Assembly: GCA_013002205.1 (NCBI GenBank)
Contig: JABDKN010000093.1
Span: 1 to 63,289, forward strand
Length of the DNA: 63,289 bases
Direction of reading: 5' to 3'
From: Granulosicoccus sp.
GTDB taxonomy: Bacteria; Pseudomonadota; Gammaproteobacteria; Granulosicoccales; Granulosicoccaceae
The notes under the pieces were generated by a model, which made no database searches, was not told the DNA's origin, and saw only the letters and a program-made list of their open reading frames with translations. Below, one piece after another: positions 38,240 to 44,937 of the stretch. How positions within the stretch are numbered: the stretch's first letter is position 1; each line of letters opens with the position of its first letter. The position numbers were made by a program, and so were the translations under genes.

Positions 38240-38851
38240 CTACAGCATCATCAGGCCTTCAGCGTCGATTCCGATGGTGATGGCACCGATGGCCTCGCCG
38301 GTGTCAGGATCGACGACGGTCACACTCACTTGAGTCTGGTAGCGTTGAGAGGATTCATCCAGTTCAACCTCGTCGACGAATACGGCATCGGGACCCACAG
38401 AATAGGATTTCTGCCATTTACTCTCATCGCCCTGCCAGTAGTCTGAAGTGACGTTGCTCTGGCCGACATTGAGACCGCGATTATCCATCGCGAAAATTTC
38501 GGTAATCAGCCCATTGGACTCCTTTTGCACCTGCTTGAGATAGGCGGACAGATCATTGCCCAGCACATCGGCAATCATTGGACCACTACCGCTGCGGGAT
38601 TGTGTGCGCCAGGCCATGTCCAGAGTATCGATATCGGTCTGTGACAATCCGCTGCTGGTAATATTCTGCGCCTTGATCGAGTCGATGACCACGGCATCAG
38701 ACAGCCATTTCTGCGCGTGCAAATCGATGAACGCGCGCGCCGCCTGCGAGATATCCGCATTGGATTGAGCGAGGCCGACTACCGGGGCGAGAGAGACGCA
38801 GCCGAGCAGTGAGGCTGCAAAAAAGAGAGTACGGGCGCCAGATTGGGTCAT
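38240..38851 (-). CDS. Periplasmic PDC/Cache-type sensor protein
   Basis: The 203-residue product has a signal peptide (about 1-29, ending GLA-QS) and a single soluble domain. The pattern MDNRGLNVGQSNVTSDYWQG, SVGPDAVFVDEVELDES, then VDPDTGEAIGAITIGIDAEG is that of stand-alone PDC (Cache-like) sensor proteins. There is no membrane anchor at the C-terminus. It lies directly upstream of a chemoreceptor gene, so it may act as a periplasmic ligand-binding partner; this is inference from position. Confidence 0.78.
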   Translation of the reverse strand: MTQSGARTLFFAASLLGCVSLAPVVGLAQSNADISQAARAFIDLHAQKWLSDAVVIDSIKAQNITSSGLSQTDIDTLDMAWRTQSRSGSGPMIADVLGNDLSAYLKQVQKESNGLITEIFAMDNRGLNVGQSNVTSDYWQGDESKWQKSYSVGPDAVFVDEVELDESSQRYQTQVSVTVVDPDTGEAIGAITIGIDAEGLMML

Positions 38852-39028
38852 GCGAATACCTGCTTTGATTGATGTGATGTGTGGTGAGAAACAACGCAGA
38901 AAGGGCGTTGTCTTCTACTCCAGGCATCGGCCTTTCAATGCAGGGCTTGATGGATCCGGGCGGCCAGTATGTTAGCCCGGAGCGGGTATGGCTGCATCCC
39001 GGGGAACAGCATCGGCATGGGGTATCGA

Positions 39029-39104
39029 TTCAAGCTCGGGGTAACACTTCAAGCTCGGGGTAATACTTCAACTTCGGGGTATCGCTTCATGCTCGGGATA
39101 AGGT
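39029..39104 (+). repeat. 19-base tandem repeat, four copies
   Basis: Four head-to-tail 19-base units start with TTCAAGCTCGGGGTAACAC; the second copy differs by one base and the next two by more. A partial fifth copy (TTCAGC) follows. The array is non-coding and starts 13 bases beyond the 3' end of mlaB, in the gap before the Cache-type gene. It may help end the mla transcript or bind a protein; no function is recognised. Confidence 0.85.
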
Positions 39105-39116
39105 TTCAGCTATCGA

Positions 39117-39410
39117 TCAGTTGATGAAACCGTCCACCTGACAGACTTTGGCCAACTGCTGCAGCCCCTCGGGGATATCATGGAACACAAGATCATGACC
39201 CGAGCGCAGAGCCAGGCCTTTGACCTCTATCATCAGGGCCAGTGCGGCACTGTTACACTCGGTTACGCCGTCGAAACTGATCTGCCGCAACTCACCGGAC
39301 TGAACCAGCGGGCTCATTTTGTCCAGAGCTCGCCGGGCCGTGGTGAAATCCAGAGTTCCGCCGACCACGCAGTGTGTATCCGTTTGCTCGAGCGTGAAAC
39401 CCTCATTCAT
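39117..39410 (-). CDS. mlaB: STAS-domain protein MlaB
   Basis: MlaB is the cytoplasmic STAS subunit that stabilises the MlaFEDB phospholipid transporter. The 97-residue product has the STAS pattern (GTLDFTTARRALDK, then QISFDGVTECNSAALALMIE) and ends in LAKVCQVDGFIN. The conserved helix-start serine/threonine position reads ECNSAAL. It is the last gene of mlaFEDCB and overlaps mlaC by ATGA. Confidence 0.9.
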   Translation of the reverse strand: MNEGFTLEQTDTHCVVGGTLDFTTARRALDKMSPLVQSGELRQISFDGVTECNSAALALMIEVKGLALRSGHDLVFHDIPEGLQQLAKVCQVDGFIN

Positions 39411-40012
39411 GATTTCGCATTTCTGTCCTTGAGCGTATCGATCAGGCCGGCAATACCGCCCTTGCCTATCTCGTTGGTGAAAGCGGAACGGTAACTGGTA
39501 ACCAGACTGAGGTTATTGACTTCAATGTCGTAGATACTCCAGCCATTTTTTTCCCGTAGCTTGTAGACCACCGGCACATCACTGGCGCCAGCCTGACTGA
39601 AGGTCGATCGCACAACGGCCCGGTCATCCCTGCTTTCGGGCCGGAATGGTTCAAACGTAATCGATTCGCCGCTGTATTCAGTCAATGCACCCGTGTAGGT
39701 GTTCAGCAGCAATGTCTTGAATTCCTTGACGAGTTCTATTTTCTGATCATTGTCCGCCTTGCGCCAGAATTTGCCCACCGCCAGTTTCGTCATCGTGTCG
39801 AAGTCAAGGTTGGGAACGATCAACTCGTCCACTCGGGATTGCAGGTAATCCGGATCAGATTTGATTCTGTCACCTTCGTTCTTCAATACATCGAGCATCG
39901 CCGTGATCGAGTCGACGACCAGCGTCTGGGCAGGATGATCCGCCGCATGCGATGCCACACCGACCATGCTCAGAGCCATGGCTGCCAAAATTACCTGAAT
40001 ACGTTTCAACAT
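39407..40012 (-). CDS. mlaC: Periplasmic phospholipid-binding protein MlaC
   Basis: MlaC carries phospholipids through the periplasm between MlaA at the outer membrane and MlaFEDB at the inner membrane. The 201-residue product has a signal peptide (MLKRIQVILAAMALSM, ending SHA-AD) and the MlaC/Ttg2D fold (IVPNLDFDTMTKLAVGKFWR, FKTLLLNTYTGAL). I chose the ATG at 40012 because it gives a clean signal peptide with AGGAAG upstream; 40057 would add 15 residues. Confidence 0.93.
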   Translation of the reverse strand: MLKRIQVILAAMALSMVGVASHAADHPAQTLVVDSITAMLDVLKNEGDRIKSDPDYLQSRVDELIVPNLDFDTMTKLAVGKFWRKADNDQKIELVKEFKTLLLNTYTGALTEYSGESITFEPFRPESRDDRAVVRSTFSQAGASDVPVVYKLREKNGWSIYDIEVNNLSLVTSYRSAFTNEIGKGGIAGLIDTLKDRNAKS

Positions 40013-40056
40013 GCCTAGTCTTCCTGTCATTGATTGAGTGGCAGCGTAACTGACCA

Positions 40057-40521
40057 CTAGCTTCCACCAGATCGGCTGAACAATACCTGACCAATGAGTC
40101 GTTCCAGCACGATTGCGGATTGTGTGAGCGAGATCTCGTCTGAGTCCTGCAGCATATCTTCCTCGGCTCCCGGATCCAGACCGATGTACTGTTCACCCAG
40201 CAGCCCTGCCGTGTAGATACTTGCCGTTGTGTCCAATGGGAAAGCATCGCTGAAACGGTTGTCGATAGTCAGAGTCACGCTGGCCTCAAAGGTTTCAGGA
40301 TCGTAGGTGATGTCGCTCACTTCACCTACCTTGACTCCACTAGCGGCAACCGGTGCTCTTGGCTTCAGGCCACCGACATTCTCGAACTTGGCCACCAGTG
40401 TGTATCCGGAAGTACTGGTAAAACTTGTCAGGTTACTCACTTTCATGGCCAGCACGAACATGGCTCCGAGAAACAGGAGCATGAACAGTCCGACCAGTAC
40501 TTCGATTGCACGTGAATTCAT
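40057..40521 (-). CDS. mlaD: MCE-domain protein MlaD
   Basis: MlaD is the inner-membrane MCE protein whose hexameric ring forms the periplasmic part of the Mla transporter. The 154-residue product has one N-terminal membrane segment (VLVGLFMLLFLGAMFVLAM), the MCE domain (YTLVAKFENVGGLKPRAPV, SGVKVGEVSDI) and the pore-loop region TAGLLGEQYIGLDPGAE. It lies 34 bases after mlaE. Confidence 0.94.
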   Translation of the reverse strand: MNSRAIEVLVGLFMLLFLGAMFVLAMKVSNLTSFTSTSGYTLVAKFENVGGLKPRAPVAASGVKVGEVSDITYDPETFEASVTLTIDNRFSDAFPLDTTASIYTAGLLGEQYIGLDPGAEEDMLQDSDEISLTQSAIVLERLIGQVLFSRSGGS

Positions 40522-40555
40522 TGTAAATCTCTTGATGTCTATTCTGGATATCGGG

Positions 40556-41329
40556 CTAGAACATGACTGCGGTCAGCAGGAAGTCCAGGCCGAGTATGGC
40601 CAGGGATGAATAAACCACGGTTCTTGTCGTGGCGCTGCTGACGCCCTCGGAAGTGGGAATACAGTCGGCACCTTCGAAGATGGCAATCCATGCAACGACG
40701 AAACCGAACACCAGACCCTTGATCAATCCATTGCAGACATCGCTGGTAAAACTGGTCGCATTCTGCATCTGGGACCAGTAAGCTGCGGCATCCACACCAA
40801 GCACTTCCACCCCGACCAGGTGACCACCCATGACGCCTACGGCACTGAACATGGCCGCCAGCATCGGTAGTGCCAGGAATGCAGCCAGGAATCGCGGCGC
40901 AAACACCCGCTTGTAAGGATCCACCGCCATCATTTCAAGGCCTGACAACTGCTCGGTCGCCTTCATCAGACCGATCTCGGCAGTCAGGGCTGAGCCCGCC
41001 CGTCCCGCAAACAGCAGACCCGTTACGACAGGGCCTAGCTCTCGTACCAGAGTCAGTGCCACCAGCGTACCCACCCGGTTCTCCTGACCGAAATCTATCA
41101 GTGTGTTGTACGCCTGCAGCGCAAGAACCATACCGACGAACAGGCCCGAAACCAGCACGATGGAAAGCGTCATGACGCCAGTCGAGTGCAACTGCCTGAC
41201 CAGCAGTGAGGGTCGCTTCACCAGGGAAAACAATGCCCCGAGTATATGCAACAGAAAGAGTGTCGCACGACCCAGCCGCTCTACCATGCTGAGCCAGGAG
41301 CGTCCGAATCGCTGCAGAAAATCGGTCAT
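40556..41329 (-). CDS. mlaE: ABC transporter permease MlaE
   Basis: MlaE is the membrane permease of the Mla phospholipid transporter. The 257-residue product has about five membrane segments and the family motifs VSGLFVGMVLALQAYNTL, ELGPVVTGLLFAGRAGSALT, EIGLMKATEQLSGLEMMAVDP and GFVVAWIAIFEGADC. It overlaps mlaF by ATGA. Confidence 0.95.
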   Translation of the reverse strand: MTDFLQRFGRSWLSMVERLGRATLFLLHILGALFSLVKRPSLLVRQLHSTGVMTLSIVLVSGLFVGMVLALQAYNTLIDFGQENRVGTLVALTLVRELGPVVTGLLFAGRAGSALTAEIGLMKATEQLSGLEMMAVDPYKRVFAPRFLAAFLALPMLAAMFSAVGVMGGHLVGVEVLGVDAAAYWSQMQNATSFTSDVCNGLIKGLVFGFVVAWIAIFEGADCIPTSEGVSSATTRTVVYSSLAILGLDFLLTAVMF

Positions 41330-42198
41330 CGCGCAGCTCCAGCCACCGGCTGCCCGGCGACCTGCGATTGCTGCCCGAACAAGTCGGTCTGGTAATCGGG
41401 GGCAGGTGCCTGGAATGGAACAGGCCCATCGGGCATGCCATGCAGGAACTGCTGCACCCAGGGCGAGTCGGAATTTTCCAGTTGATCAGGTGAACCTGCT
41501 TCCACCACGACGCCTTCAGAGATGATCACCGCATAGTCGGAAATGGACAAAGATTCCTTGAGATCATGCGACACGATCAGACTGGTCAGGCCCAGTGCGC
41601 CGTTGACAGTCTGGATAAGCTCCAGCAGTACGCCCATGGAAATTGGATCCTGACCAGTGAAAGGTTCGTCATACATGATCATCATCGGGTCGAAAACCAG
41701 TGCCCGCGCCAGCGCAGCTCGCCTGGCCATGCCTCCGGAAAGCTCGGCCGGTGCCAGATCACGCGCGCCACGCAGACCAACGGCGTGCAGGCGCATCAGC
41801 ACCAGGTGAGAAATAAGTGATTCGGGCAGATCCGTGTGTTCACGCAACGGATAGGCGACGTTATCGAACACCGAGAGATCAGTCAGCAGGGCGCCGGACT
41901 GGAACAGCATGCCAAGACGCTTGCGCAGCTCATAAAGCGCTGAGCGTTTCAACTTGCCGACATCCAGACCATCCACCGTGATACCGCCCTGGCTGGCCTT
42001 CAACTGTCCGCCGATCATTTTCAGCAGGGTTGTCTTGCCCGTGCCGCTCGGGCCAAGTATGGTCGTGACCTTGCCCCGTGGTATATCCAAGTTCAGGCCG
42101 CGAAATATATGCTTGCTTCCTCGAAAGAAGTGCAGGTCGCGGATGCGGACAAGCGTCGATCCATCTTCAGACATCGGATTTGGGGAACTCATGCGCAT
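41326..42198 (-). CDS. mlaF: ABC transporter ATPase MlaF
   Basis: MlaF is the ATPase that powers the Mla transporter. The 290-residue product has Walker A (GPSGTGKTT), the signature LSGGMARRAALAR, Walker B (MIMYDEPF) and the switch histidine (IVSHD). It has a C-terminal extension of about 25 residues beyond the usual end (FQAPAPDYQTDLF onward), longer than E. coli MlaF. It heads mlaFEDCB and is divergent from mlaA. Confidence 0.95.
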   Translation of the reverse strand: MRMSSPNPMSEDGSTLVRIRDLHFFRGSKHIFRGLNLDIPRGKVTTILGPSGTGKTTLLKMIGGQLKASQGGITVDGLDVGKLKRSALYELRKRLGMLFQSGALLTDLSVFDNVAYPLREHTDLPESLISHLVLMRLHAVGLRGARDLAPAELSGGMARRAALARALVFDPMMIMYDEPFTGQDPISMGVLLELIQTVNGALGLTSLIVSHDLKESLSISDYAVIISEGVVVEAGSPDQLENSDSPWVQQFLHGMPDGPVPFQAPAPDYQTDLFGQQSQVAGQPVAGAAR

Positions 42199-42265
42199 GC
42201 AATTTATGTGAAGTGTACCAGTTTGCCTGTCCTACTCAGTTGTACGGATAATTTAAGAAACACCT

Positions 42266-42296
42266 GGGCTGGAGACTCCGCACACATCGCCAGCCC
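42266..42296. repeat. Inverted repeat in the mlaF/mlaA divergent region
   Basis: GGGCTGG and CCAGCCC form a perfect 7-base stem with a 17-base loop; flanking CCTGGG/CCCAGG offers a second pairing. It lies in the region that must hold promoters for both mla transcripts. No regulator is recognised. Confidence 0.3.
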
Positions 42297-42445
42297 GCCC
42301 AGGACCCGTCCCCAGGTTTCCTATCGTTCATGCACGGTCAGCTACAATGGCCAGGTAACCTCAACTCCGGCCCTGACCTGCTGGCGCAACTGCGATGCCA
42401 AAACCATTGTTTCCTTCATTGTTACTCGCCTGTAATCATCGTGAG

Positions 42446-42535
42446 GGTCGGACCATGCTCGGTCGGACCATGCTCGGTCGGACCGCGCTGGGTCGGGCCG
42501 CGCTCGGTCGGACCACGCTCGGCAGGGCTGCGTGC
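42446..42535 (+). repeat. 15-base tandem repeat at the 5' end of mlaA
   Basis: Six head-to-tail units based on GGTCGGACCATGCTC; the first two are identical and later ones diverge. The repeat covers the start codon and the signal-peptide n-region of mlaA and encodes Leu-Gly-Arg-Thr/Ala-x units. The first two units each carry an in-frame ATG. Confidence 0.92.
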
Positions 42536-43345
42536 TGTCGACTGGCAATGGCCTTATCGACCCTTGTCATGGTCGGCTGCGCCAGTAATCCACCCACCGG
42601 ACCGGTCTACGACCCGTTTGAAGGCATCAACCGACAGATCTACCGATTCAATACAGCGCTGGACGATGCAGTTCTCAAGCCAGTTGCAAAGGGTTACCGG
42701 TTCGTATTGCCTGATCCGGTGGAAATCGGTATCAGCAACTTCTTCAGCAATCTGGACGATGTAAACGTCATTGCCAACGATCTGCTGCAGGGCAAGTTTC
42801 GCCAGGCAGGCAGCGACACCGGACGCTTCCTCTACAACACCACCGCAGGTCTGCTCGGGTTCCTTGACGTCAGTACACGCGCCGGCCTGGTCAAGCACGA
42901 TGAATCGTTCGGACAGACACTCGGGGTATGGGGCGTCGGCGAAGGCCCCTTCGTCATGCTGCCGCTGCTGGGACCCAACAATGGACGATCCACCACCGGC
43001 CTGGTGGTGGAGAAATTTACGACGGACGTGCCGCGACATACCATTGACGATACTGACGCCCGACTGGCCCTGTCAGCCCTGGACATCATTGCCCTGCGGG
43101 CTCGACTGCTGTCTGCCGGCAATCTGCTCGACGCAGCCGCACTGGATCCATACCTGTTATTACGCGATTTCTGGGTTCAACAACATCGTCGGTCGACCTG
43201 GGACGGAAAGCGGGAAGTCGGTATCGGCACGGCGACAATGGATGGTGACGACGACCTGGATGAACTCGATGAACTCGATGAACTCGACGAACTCGACGAA
43301 CTCGACGAACTCGATGAACTCGACGAACTCGACGCGCTGGACTGA
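42455..43345 (+). CDS. mlaA: Outer-membrane lipoprotein MlaA (VacJ)
   Basis: MlaA removes phospholipids from the outer leaflet of the outer membrane and hands them to MlaC. From the ATG at 42455 the product has 296 residues: a lipoprotein signal with lipobox VMVGC followed by ASNPPTG, the core (YDPFEGINRQIYRFN, LNTxxG-like YNTTAGLLGFLDV, GVGEGPFVMLPLLGP) and DPYLLLRD. Two features are odd: the n-region is made of six 5-residue repeats (LGRTx), and the end is an acidic tail of eight LDE repeats. A GAGGG site precedes the chosen ATG; an ATG at 42470 and an open frame from 42395 are alternatives. It heads mlaA-kdsD-lptCAB. Confidence 0.92.
   Translation: MLGRTMLGRTALGRAALGRTTLGRAACCRLAMALSTLVMVGCASNPPTGPVYDPFEGINRQIYRFNTALDDAVLKPVAKGYRFVLPDPVEIGISNFFSNLDDVNVIANDLLQGKFRQAGSDTGRFLYNTTAGLLGFLDVSTRAGLVKHDESFGQTLGVWGVGEGPFVMLPLLGPNNGRSTTGLVVEKFTTDVPRHTIDDTDARLALSALDIIALRARLLSAGNLLDAAALDPYLLLRDFWVQQHRRSTWDGKREVGIGTATMDGDDDLDELDELDELDELDELDELDELDELDALD
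43256..43342 (+). repeat. 9-base tandem repeat at the 3' end of mlaA
   Basis: Eight units of CTCGAYGAA (first unit CTGGATGAA), then a diverged unit and a half. It encodes (Leu-Asp-Glu)8 followed by LDALD, making a strongly acidic tail. Copy-number changes would keep the frame and only alter tail length. Confidence 0.95.
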
Positions 43346-43350
43346 GGTCA

Positions 43351-44355
43351 ATGGTCGGCACCCGCAGCGTTACAACCATGAATCCTGACCAGGAATCCCT
43401 GCTCAGGCTGGGCAGGTCCGTCATTCAGATCGAGGCGACAGCGGTTGCCCGGCTGGAATCCCGTATCGATGCGGAGTTCGTCCGCGCCTGCGAGCTGCTG
43501 ATCGGCTGCGAAGGTCGTATCGTGGTGTGTGGCATTGGCAAGTCCGGGCATATCGGGGCCAAACTTGCAGCCACCCTTGCCAGCACCGGCAGCCCTGCCT
43601 TCTTTGTGCATGCAGCCGAAGCCAGCCACGGTGATCTGGGCATGCTCAAGGGCAACGATGTCGTGATTGCCATCTCGTACTCCGGCAACTCGGCAGAATT
43701 GATGACACTGATTCCCGGGATAAAACGCATGGGCGTCCCGTTGATCAGCCTGTGTGGCGAGCCGGATTCGCCGCTGGCAAGTGCCTCTGACGTCAAGCTC
43801 AATACACGGGTGGAACGTGAAGCCTGCCCCCTGGGACTGGCACCTACCGCCAGCACGACCGCCACATTGGCGTTTGGCGACGCGCTGGCAATAGCATTGC
43901 TGGGTGCGCGTGGTTTCAGCGAGGAAGACTTTGCACGTTCTCACCCTGGAGGCCGTCTGGGACGGCGCCTGTTACTGCGCGTGGAGGATGTCATGGTTCA
44001 GGGATCAGCCTGCCCGCGCATTCGTGATACTGCGACCCTCGCCGAGGCTCTAGTGGAAATAAGCTCCAAGGGCCTGGGCATGGTTGCACTGATCGACGAA
44101 CAGGAGCGCTTGACAGGCATATTCACCGACGGTGACCTGCGGCGCACGTTCGAACGTGACCTGGACATACGCAAACTCGGCATTCACTCGGTGATGACGC
44201 GCACACCGGCCACCATCACCCGTGAGGCCCTGGCAGTCAATGCAGTCAGCCGCATGCAGACGCTGCGCATCACCGCCCTGCCCGTGGTGCGCGACGGCAC
44301 CCTGCTGGAGGGCGTAGTAACCATGCATGCCTTGCTCGGCGCCGGGGTGGTCTGA
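43351..44355 (+). CDS. kdsD: D-arabinose 5-phosphate isomerase KdsD
   Basis: KdsD converts ribulose 5-phosphate to arabinose 5-phosphate for Kdo synthesis. The 334-residue product has a SIS domain (VVCGIGKSGHIGAKLAATLAS, GDLGMLKGNDVVIAISYSGNS) and two CBS domains (from about residue 215; FTDGDLRRTFERD). It starts 5 bases after mlaA, with GAGG upstream; the ATG at 43378 (MNPDQESLL) is an alternative start. The usual next gene kdsC is absent; lptC follows directly. Confidence 0.95.
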   Translation: MVGTRSVTTMNPDQESLLRLGRSVIQIEATAVARLESRIDAEFVRACELLIGCEGRIVVCGIGKSGHIGAKLAATLASTGSPAFFVHAAEASHGDLGMLKGNDVVIAISYSGNSAELMTLIPGIKRMGVPLISLCGEPDSPLASASDVKLNTRVEREACPLGLAPTASTTATLAFGDALAIALLGARGFSEEDFARSHPGGRLGRRLLLRVEDVMVQGSACPRIRDTATLAEALVEISSKGLGMVALIDEQERLTGIFTDGDLRRTFERDLDIRKLGIHSVMTRTPATITREALAVNAVSRMQTLRITALPVVRDGTLLEGVVTMHALLGAGVV

Positions 44356-44361
44356 AACGCC

Positions 44362-44937
44362 ATGCTGTCGCGACTGGTTTCCCGCTACTGGTTTCTGCTA
44401 CCTCTGTTGATCGTGGTCGTGATTGCGGTGGACCGGCTCGAGGAGCCGGTGTTCATCGAAGTGGAGGAAACCATCGACATGCGCCAGACACGCTCCGACT
44501 ACTACCTGGCCCAGTTCCGGTCCCGCAAATTCGGCCCCGGAGGGCAGATCGAATATACCGTCGAGGGCGAAACACTGGCCCATTATCCGCACAATGATCG
44601 ATCCGAGATTACTGCGCCGCGTGTCGAACTGCTCCGCGAGGATACCCACTGGCAGATACAATCCGACACCGGGCAATTCGATCCGGACCCTGACCTGTTT
44701 ACCTTGTCCGGGGACGTGATCGTCAAACGCGTGGCACTTTCAGGCGCGCCGGTCACCATTCGCACCAGCACACTCAGTATCGCAACCGAATCCAATGAAG
44801 TCTCCACCGACGCCGCCATCGAACTCAGCGCACCGACGTGGCAACTGCAGGCTATCGGCCTGAAATCCGCCATCGATGACGGTAAGCTTTCCCTGCTCTC
44901 CAATGTCATCGGTCACTACCAGGTACCCGAACCGTGA
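44362..44937 (+). CDS. lptC: LPS export protein LptC
   Basis: LptC is the bitopic inner-membrane subunit of the LPS export bridge, linking LptB2FG to LptA. The 191-residue product has one N-terminal membrane segment (YWFLLPLLIVVVIAVDRL) and the LptC beta-jellyroll (ARHTR-like RQTRSDYYLAQFRSRKFG, VELLREDTHWQIQSDTG, LFTLSGDVIVKR). It starts 6 bases after kdsD and overlaps lptA by 4 bases. Confidence 0.92.
   Translation: MLSRLVSRYWFLLPLLIVVVIAVDRLEEPVFIEVEETIDMRQTRSDYYLAQFRSRKFGPGGQIEYTVEGETLAHYPHNDRSEITAPRVELLREDTHWQIQSDTGQFDPDPDLFTLSGDVIVKRVALSGAPVTIRTSTLSIATESNEVSTDAAIELSAPTWQLQAIGLKSAIDDGKLSLLSNVIGHYQVPEP

What the first reader, a model, noticed from the sequence alone, without database searches (positions are those of the whole stretch)
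42446..42535. Signal peptide of mlaA is built from six tandem 15-base repeats that also carry alternative start codons
Units of GGTCGGACCATGCTC run from the ribosome-binding area through the n-region of the MlaA lipoprotein signal. The first two units are identical and each has an in-frame ATG, so copy-number change would alter both the start options and the positive n-region without a frameshift. This could tune export of an outer-membrane asymmetry factor. The repeat is seen directly; a tuning role is inference.
Basis: partly seen in the sequence, partly recalled or inferred. Interest (0 to 1): 0.6.

Follow-up and report, generated by a model that had tools for sequence, protein, structure and literature searches.

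The report
Dispersed 15-base repeat inside mlaA
The odd repeated start of this outer-membrane lipoprotein gene is one copy of a short repeat that turns up, in several reading frames and either direction, in genes of unrelated bacteria, so it looks like wandering DNA that the signal peptide tolerates rather than a dial for protein export.

Summary
The repeat is real: five good 15-bp units plus a decayed sixth at 42446-42535 (Tandem Repeats Finder score 112; best of 100 shuffles 66). It lies in frame in the MlaA signal peptide. The 23 relatives I could read (of 24 with mlaA) lack it and have ordinary signal peptides. ATG 42455, in unit 1, has the best ribosome-binding site, though ATG 42395 aligns with the relatives' starts. 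"Export tuning" has no support. What matters is that the unit is not special to mlaA. The same genome carries it in the signal peptide of a polysaccharide-export protein, in another frame, and in a FxsA tail. Its close variant GGTCGGGCCGCG(C/T)TC forms arrays in Parahaliea, Halomonas, Modicisalibacter, Duganella, an acidobacterium and 18 of 36 Spirosoma genomes (reversed control 4 of 36). Arrays are read in five of six frames. Copy number differs between species at orthologous sites, and one Spirosoma permease loop holds the array in opposite orientations in different species. I read it as a dispersed, in-frame-tolerated minisatellite, shared across phyla, that landed in mlaA. How it spreads is unknown, and in this genus outside the window's genome it is at background. 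Ten paper searches found no description of it.

The parts
42337..42348 (+). conserved GTCAGCTACAAT, possible promoter -10 region of mlaA
   Evidence: a CTACAMT-type box was found by pattern upstream of mlaA in 20 of 23 relatives read; distance from its end to the lipobox Cys codon is 80-136 nt in 19 of them and 165 nt in one (G005), 229 nt in the window (alignment). Promoter role inferred; the consensus promoter scan marked another site (42223-42252), not this one
42395..42397 (+). ATG that aligns with the relatives' mlaA start codons
   Evidence: MAFFT alignment with six relatives; weak anti-SD pairing -1.5 kcal/mol
42446..42520 (+). five good 15-bp units (GGTCGGACCATGCTC x2, GGTCGGACCGCGCTG, GGTCGGGCCGCGCTC, GGTCGGACCACGCTC), read as GR(T/A)xL
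42521..42535 (+). decayed sixth unit GGCAGGGCTGCGTGC
   Evidence: 8 of 15 bases match the unit
42443..42446 (+). GAGG, likely ribosome-binding site, eight bases before ATG 42455
   Evidence: sequence; anti-SD -6.2 kcal/mol; inferred
42455..42457 (+). most likely start codon (in unit 1)
   Evidence: best anti-SD pairing of the four ATGs tested; inferred
42470..42472 (+). second in-array ATG (unit 2)
   Evidence: anti-SD -3.0 kcal/mol
42578..42580 (+). lipobox cysteine codon (VMVGC)
   Evidence: alignment with relatives
42455..43345 (+). mlaA coding sequence (296 aa from ATG 42455)
   Evidence: Pfam MlaA residues 52-245, E 2.1e-70

Best explanation
The array is one insertion of a dispersed 15-bp minisatellite family (core GGTCGGRCC, usual unit GGTCGGGCCGCG[C/T]TC, here GGTCGGACCRYGCTC). 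SHOWN: the family forms separate arrays at several places in the same genome, in either orientation and in five of six reading frames, in Gammaproteobacteria and Bacteroidota, and copy number differs between related species at orthologous sites. INFERRED: an array arose in or was copied into the mlaA signal peptide after this lineage split from its relatives. It was kept because 15 is a multiple of three, the unit has no stop in any frame, and an Arg-containing n-region that is cleaved off with the signal peptide is a tolerant place. It split the ancestral signal sequence and probably moved the used start codon into the first unit. Units then change number by slippage or unequal recombination. 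Effects on MlaA level or export are probably small and incidental. How the unit spreads between loci and between phyla is unknown.
For: Own genome: arrays at three places, mlaA, C115 (polysaccharide-export protein signal peptide, frame VGPRS) and C59 (FxsA tail, frame ERGPT). Relatives lack the insert: 23 mlaA genes read and 9 of 21 polysaccharide-export loci of relatives whose N-terminus my pattern could read. Genome collection scan: 21 loci; in 11 of them, from 9 genomes, at least one of the two matched units is GGTCGGGCCGCG(CTC), in 7 both. Same-genome dispersal: Spirosoma G396 at 7 places, G395 at 4, Parahaliea G393 at 5, reversed-pattern control 3 matches in 17 genomes. Spirosoma: 18 of 36 genomes, 44 matches in 33 places, control 6 matches in 4 genomes. 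Copy change at orthologous sites: esterase about 4 units in G425, about 1 diverged unit in its 93%-identical sister G413, none in the other 28 loci read; about 3 against about 2 units in L159/L198. Opposite orientation at the same loop of a MacB/FtsX-type permease. Arrays outside the matched Pfam stretch in 16 of 21 proteins with a hit above cut-off, 24 chosen proteins scanned. Unit stop-free in six frames.
Against: In the genus itself the unit is not above background outside G000: with the looser pattern relatives give 5 matches against 27 for the reversed control; stricter patterns give one match in G006 and one in G007, controls 0 there. In G000 two further single hits (C72, C279, 3 mismatches) are at the level of the control, which gave 5. 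Among 369 gammaproteobacterial genomes only G000 and G320 have convincing arrays; the other four genomes with a hit give 4 matches against 5 for the control. The collection scan itself could not be repeated with a control pattern. Ten of its 21 loci (eight actinobacterial) have other units and may be unrelated GC-rich coding repeats. Three genomes sent to (G006, G012, G404) had no match. Arrays have heterogeneous ends, I saw no target-site duplication, and no machinery was found. The esterase length difference (21 nt) is not a multiple of 15. Being stop-free in six frames is common for GC-rich 15-mers (100% of shuffles of the GCG units), so it is a permissive property, not evidence of selection. 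Chance convergence on one unit in two phyla cannot be formally excluded.
Confidence: 0.72

Rival explanations
1. Adaptive tuner: copy-number change in the mlaA signal peptide adjusts start-codon choice, n-region charge and so MlaA export.
For: Units in frame; two identical units with ATG suggest a recent duplication; the best ribosome-binding site is at unit 1.
Against: Absent from the 23 relatives read; the same unit sits in unrelated genes, frames and phyla; the n-region already has six Arg and no acid, so one more is unlikely to matter (inference). No strain data.
Confidence: 0.08
2. Independent local slippage: each array arose on its own from a local seed, and the shared unit reflects convergent GC-rich composition.
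For: Some arrays abut native motifs of like sequence (sulfatase RPNI, esterase RPNF); sister G413 has about one diverged unit where G425 has about four; other GC-rich 15-bp units exist in actinobacteria; background equals signal in most of the Gammaproteobacteria and in this genus.
Against: Same unit at 7, 5 and 4 places within single genomes with 3 reversed-control matches in all 17 genomes; 18 of 36 Spirosoma genomes against 4 of 36 for the control; opposite orientations at one site.
Confidence: 0.15
3. Templated synthesis: a sequence-specific enzyme such as a reverse transcriptase that makes tandem-repeat DNA produces the unit, and copies are captured at breaks.
For: Such enzymes exist: DRT10 makes RNA-templated tandem repeats (PMC12632851, passages seen). 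It would explain one unit in many contexts and both orientations.
Against: The DRT10 repeat described in the passages is 9 nt and the template loop poorly conserved between systems, unlike a unit shared across phyla; I did not look for a reverse transcriptase or template RNA in these genomes.
Confidence: 0.05

Closest known systems
[quoted passage not shown] PMC2996958)
   Same: Tandem coding repeats with patchy distribution across unrelated microbes, several loci per genome, often in membrane-targeted proteins; horizontal spread proposed (abstract and 12 passages seen).
   Different: PARCELs are defined by a 25-residue protein motif. Here the period is 5 codons, the shared thing is DNA read in five frames, and arrays are usually 2-6 units inserted in otherwise known proteins or between genes.
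Rickettsia palindromic elements (RPE)
   Same: Selfish-looking repeats kept in frame inside many unrelated proteins (recalled; only a search listing seen).
   Different: RPEs are palindromes of roughly 100-150 bp (recalled); this is a 15-bp tandem unit whose folding is unexceptional.
Bacterial minisatellites / VNTRs
   Same: Tandem units, copy number differing between related species at orthologous sites.
   Different: The same unit recurs at many loci and in different phyla; ordinary VNTR loci have unrelated units (recalled).
DRT10 tandem-repeat synthesis (PMC12632851)
   Same: Precedent for a bacterial enzyme that makes tandem-repeat DNA from a template (12 passages seen).
   Different: 9-nt repeats in the system described, poorly conserved template, no link to chromosomal arrays in the passages read.

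Membership tests
Minisatellite / VNTR | head-to-tail near-identical copies beyond chance | tested here: met
   score 112, 100 shuffles at most 66
Minisatellite / VNTR | copy number varies at the same locus | tested here: inconclusive
   met for other members of the family between species; for mlaA only presence or absence between species; no second strain available
Contingency (phase-variable) locus | unit not a multiple of three, or promoter spacing, so that copy change switches the gene | tested here: not met
   15-bp unit, in frame, downstream of the conserved upstream box
PARCEL | 25-residue amphipathic motif | tested here: not met
   5-residue period in the frames shown
PARCEL | patchy distribution across distant taxa and several loci per genome | tested here: met
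PARCEL | dyad symmetry of the repeat DNA | tested here: inconclusive
   core GGTC-G-GACC has 4-bp arms in this genome, broken in the usual unit; fold z-scores -0.9 and -1.8 for the two strands here, +1.2 and +2.9 for the L100 array
Rickettsia palindromic element | in-frame insertion in unrelated proteins | tested here: met
Rickettsia palindromic element | palindromic element of about 100-150 bp (recalled) | tested here: not met
   tandem 15-bp units; no unusually stable fold
DRT10-type product | reverse transcriptase with adjacent template RNA carrying the repeat | not tested

The most novel reading that the evidence does not exclude
GGTCGGGCCGCG(C/T)TC is a self-propagating or enzymatically made tandem DNA element that crosses phyla and enters genes in any frame and orientation, mostly at linkers, signal peptides and tails; its five-codon, stop-free unit makes insertion harmless, and it supplies new peptide linkers and, in mlaA, a new start region.
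Probability: 0.3. Interest if true: 0.85.

Novelty: new variant of a known kind. Interest (0 to 1): 0.58.

Why it matters
If the family is what it seems, bacteria carry a very short tandem element that is shared across phyla yet spreads within genomes without a known enzyme, and that rewrites protein linkers in frame. It would give a simple system to ask how minisatellites are born and moved in bacteria, and it warns that repeats at protein ends or signal peptides need not be tuned by selection. For mlaA itself it explains an odd signal peptide and an uncertain start codon.

Tried and rejected
Rejected: (1) MlaA-specific tuner, because the unit occurs in unrelated genes. (2) Hairpin or structured-RNA element: folding of both strands unexceptional, no Rfam match at 38500-44500 at the gathering threshold. 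(3) Phage or plasmid cargo: no exact pattern match in viral contigs, none for the mlaA array in plasmids; the L100 array gave two weak half-length plasmid hits. The phage record collection was not searched. (4) Operator-site array: GGTCCGACC resembles FadR/GntR boxes (recalled), but most arrays have GGCCCGACC and many lie inside genes; not pursued. (5) The exact 15-mer in what looks by eye like the DAHP synthase gene (C123, VGPCS motif) and a 1-mismatch copy in C90 are single copies and taken as coincidence. (6) In one search one of the three permease loci was aligned in the wrong orientation; one search is the corrected comparison. Literature: ten searches, including unit strings and peptide strings, found no description of this repeat; one search gave 27 papers of which 20 were listed, judged from the listing only; most subscription papers are not held.

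Weak points kept in view: relatives in the genus are below the control for the loose pattern; gammaproteobacterial hits outside G000 and G320 are at control level. The 20 array-bearing ORFs scanned were picked by me from the 23 listed, themselves chosen as gene-like; with mlaA and three permeases 24 proteins were scanned, 21 had a Pfam hit above cut-off, and the 16 of 21 count is not an unbiased sample (the three permeases are orthologs; the verrucomicrobial L103 has the variant unit GGTCGGGCCGGG(T/C)TC; no expectation was computed).

Full report
OBSERVATION. The window holds mlaA at 42455-43345 (Pfam MlaA, E 2.1e-70), with an ABC ATPase, an MlaE permease and an MlaD gene on the other strand beside it. 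At 42446-42535 the sequence repeats every 15 bases: GGTCGGACCATGCTC twice, GGTCGGACCGCGCTG, GGTCGGGCCGCGCTC, GGTCGGACCACGCTC, then a decayed GGCAGGGCTGCGTGC that matches only 8 of 15. Tandem Repeats Finder scores it 112; the best scores in 100 dinucleotide shuffles of the window average 45 and reach at most 66. Units 1 and 2 each hold an in-frame ATG.

WHERE TRANSLATION STARTS. From ATG 42455 the signal peptide is MLGRTMLGRTALGRAALGRTTLGRAACCRLAMALSTLVMVG, 41 residues with six Arg and no acid before the lipobox Cys. ATG 42455 pairs best with the anti-Shine-Dalgarno (-6.2 kcal/mol; 42395 -1.5, 42470 -3.0, 42548 +0.4). But an alignment with six relatives puts their start codon opposite ATG 42395, with the array filling a gap in the middle of the ancestral signal sequence. 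The most likely history (inference) is that the array split the old signal peptide and that the start now lies in unit 1. By eye several relatives also start without a clear ribosome-binding site, so use of 42395 cannot be excluded.

RELATIVES. Of 27 genomes of the genus searched, window's own included, 25 have mlaA; the two without are 63% and 76% complete. I could read the signal region in the window and in 23 of 24 relatives (G003 was missed by my pattern and again). None of the 23 has the array; their signal peptides are about 15-28 residues by the best in-frame Met, chosen by eye. Distance from the conserved CTACAMT box to the Cys codon is 229 nt here; the box was found in 20 of the 23, at 80-136 nt in 19 and 165 nt in one.

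THE SAME UNIT ELSEWHERE IN THE GENOME. A search of the window's own genome finds arrays at three places: mlaA; contig C115 (six units); and C59 (two units). Two more single hits with three mismatches (C72, C279) are at the level of the control (5 matches). C115 lies in the signal peptide of a Poly_export/SLBB protein (Pfam), where the same DNA is read in another frame, VGPRSVGSRSVGPRTVGPRT. Nine of the 21 loci fetched from relatives could be read at the N-terminus and none shows it, G007, G015 and G006 among them. C59 lies in the C-terminal tail of FxsA, in the opposite orientation, read ERGPT.

THE SAME UNIT IN OTHER BACTERIA. A scan of 84,980 species genomes for two adjacent units (22 fixed bases) gave 21 loci. 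In 11 of them at least one of the two units, and in 7 both, make the same choice at the free positions, GGTCGGGCCGCG: Parahaliea (2 loci), a K189A-clade genome (2), an unnamed gammaproteobacterium, Modicisalibacter, Halomonas, Duganella, two Spirosoma and an acidobacterium. The other ten (eight actinobacterial, one verrucomicrobial, one alphaproteobacterial) have other units and may be unrelated. In single genomes the unit recurs: seven places in Spirosoma G396, four in G395, five in Parahaliea G393 (two of them with three mismatches), two each in G394, G398, G399 and G320 (up to three mismatches; 14 of 17 genomes match; the reversed-pattern control gave three matches in the 17). In the genus Spirosoma 18 of 36 genomes carry it (44 matches in 33 places, up to two mismatches), against six control matches in four genomes; leaving out the two genomes that led me there, 16 of 34 against 3 of 34. 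Among 369 Gammaproteobacteria only this genome and G320 rise above control, and in this genus the relatives do not (5 matches against 27 for the control). So the family is patchy.

WHAT THE ARRAYS DO IN GENES. Arrays sit in front of sulfatase domains just after what look like signal peptides (Spirosoma twice, a verrucomicrobial genome with a variant unit once), between MarR and GNAT domains, between PA14 and OmpA domains, before a FecR domain, and at the tails of AraC, nitrate reductase delta and GNAT proteins. Of 24 chosen proteins scanned, 21 have a Pfam hit above cut-off; the array is outside the matched stretch in 16 (one touches its last residue) and inside in five. Five of six frames are used (GRAAL, VGPRS, ERGPT, PSAAR, RARPD). 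What is shared is therefore DNA, not a peptide.

HOW IT CHANGES. In an esterase, Spirosoma G425 has about four units, its 93%-identical sister G413 about one diverged unit (21 nt shorter, not a multiple of 15), and the other 28 loci read have none; 35 of 36 genomes had a match and the best 30 were fetched. At another site two species have about three and about two units. In a MacB/FtsX-type permease three species carry the array in the same loop, but G395 has it in the opposite orientation (read GRAAIGRAAG) to G420 and G431 (read RSRPDRSRPG and RTRPDRTRPG). That calls for separate gains at one tolerant site, or an inversion in place.

MECHANISM. Copy change by slippage or unequal recombination is the ordinary reading of the differences between species. 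Dispersal within genomes and the sharing of one unit by Bacteroidota and Proteobacteria need something more: copying from existing arrays by template switching, horizontal transfer of arrays with genes, or a templated enzyme. I could not decide between these. The unit is open in all six frames, but so are all shuffles of the GCG units and 43-59% of shuffles of the units seen in this genome, so this explains tolerance only.

KNOWN KINDS. PARCELs (PMC2996958; abstract and passages) are the closest published idea, a horizontally spread tandem coding repeat, but with a 25-residue protein motif. Rickettsia palindromic elements (recalled; listing) are the closest in-frame guests. DRT10 (PMC12632851; passages) shows that a bacterial enzyme can make tandem-repeat DNA, with 9-nt repeats. 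Unit strings and peptide strings gave no paper; one search gave 27 papers, judged chance hits from the 20 listed.

VERDICT. The mlaA array is real and in frame, but it is best seen as one landing of a dispersed 15-bp repeat family in a tolerant signal peptide. The tuning idea is unsupported. The family itself is the finding.

Noticed in passing
window 43249-43334: The C-terminus of the same MlaA is a 9-bp array coding (LDE)n, score 130, the strongest tandem repeat in the window. Unlike the N-terminal array it is shared by the genus: 20 of 23 relatives read have 6-18 DEL triplets, G005 and G016 have one, and in G015 the stretch reads N.
   Followed up: partly
window 39019-39101: A 19-bp imperfect tandem repeat (TTCAAGCTCGGGGTAACAC, about 3.8 copies) just downstream of a small gene (39117-39410, minus strand; STAS/MlaB-like by eye) at the end of the mla cluster.
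   Followed up: no
L136, L192, L103: Three sulfatases from two phyla carry the 15-bp repeat (in L103 the variant GGTCGGGCCGGG unit) directly before the start of the sulfatase domain, as if the array grew from or was aimed at the native RPN motif.
   Followed up: partly
L113 4018-4107; L107: Frankia and Saccharothrix hold GC-rich 15-bp arrays with other units (GGTCGGCCCATGCTC; GGGCGTACCCGGCTC, over 20 units with the flanking ones), possibly unrelated.
   Followed up: no
window 42395-42445: MPKPLFPSLLLAC ahead of the array looks like a leftover first half of the ancestral signal peptide, with a lipobox-like LLAC.
   Followed up: partly
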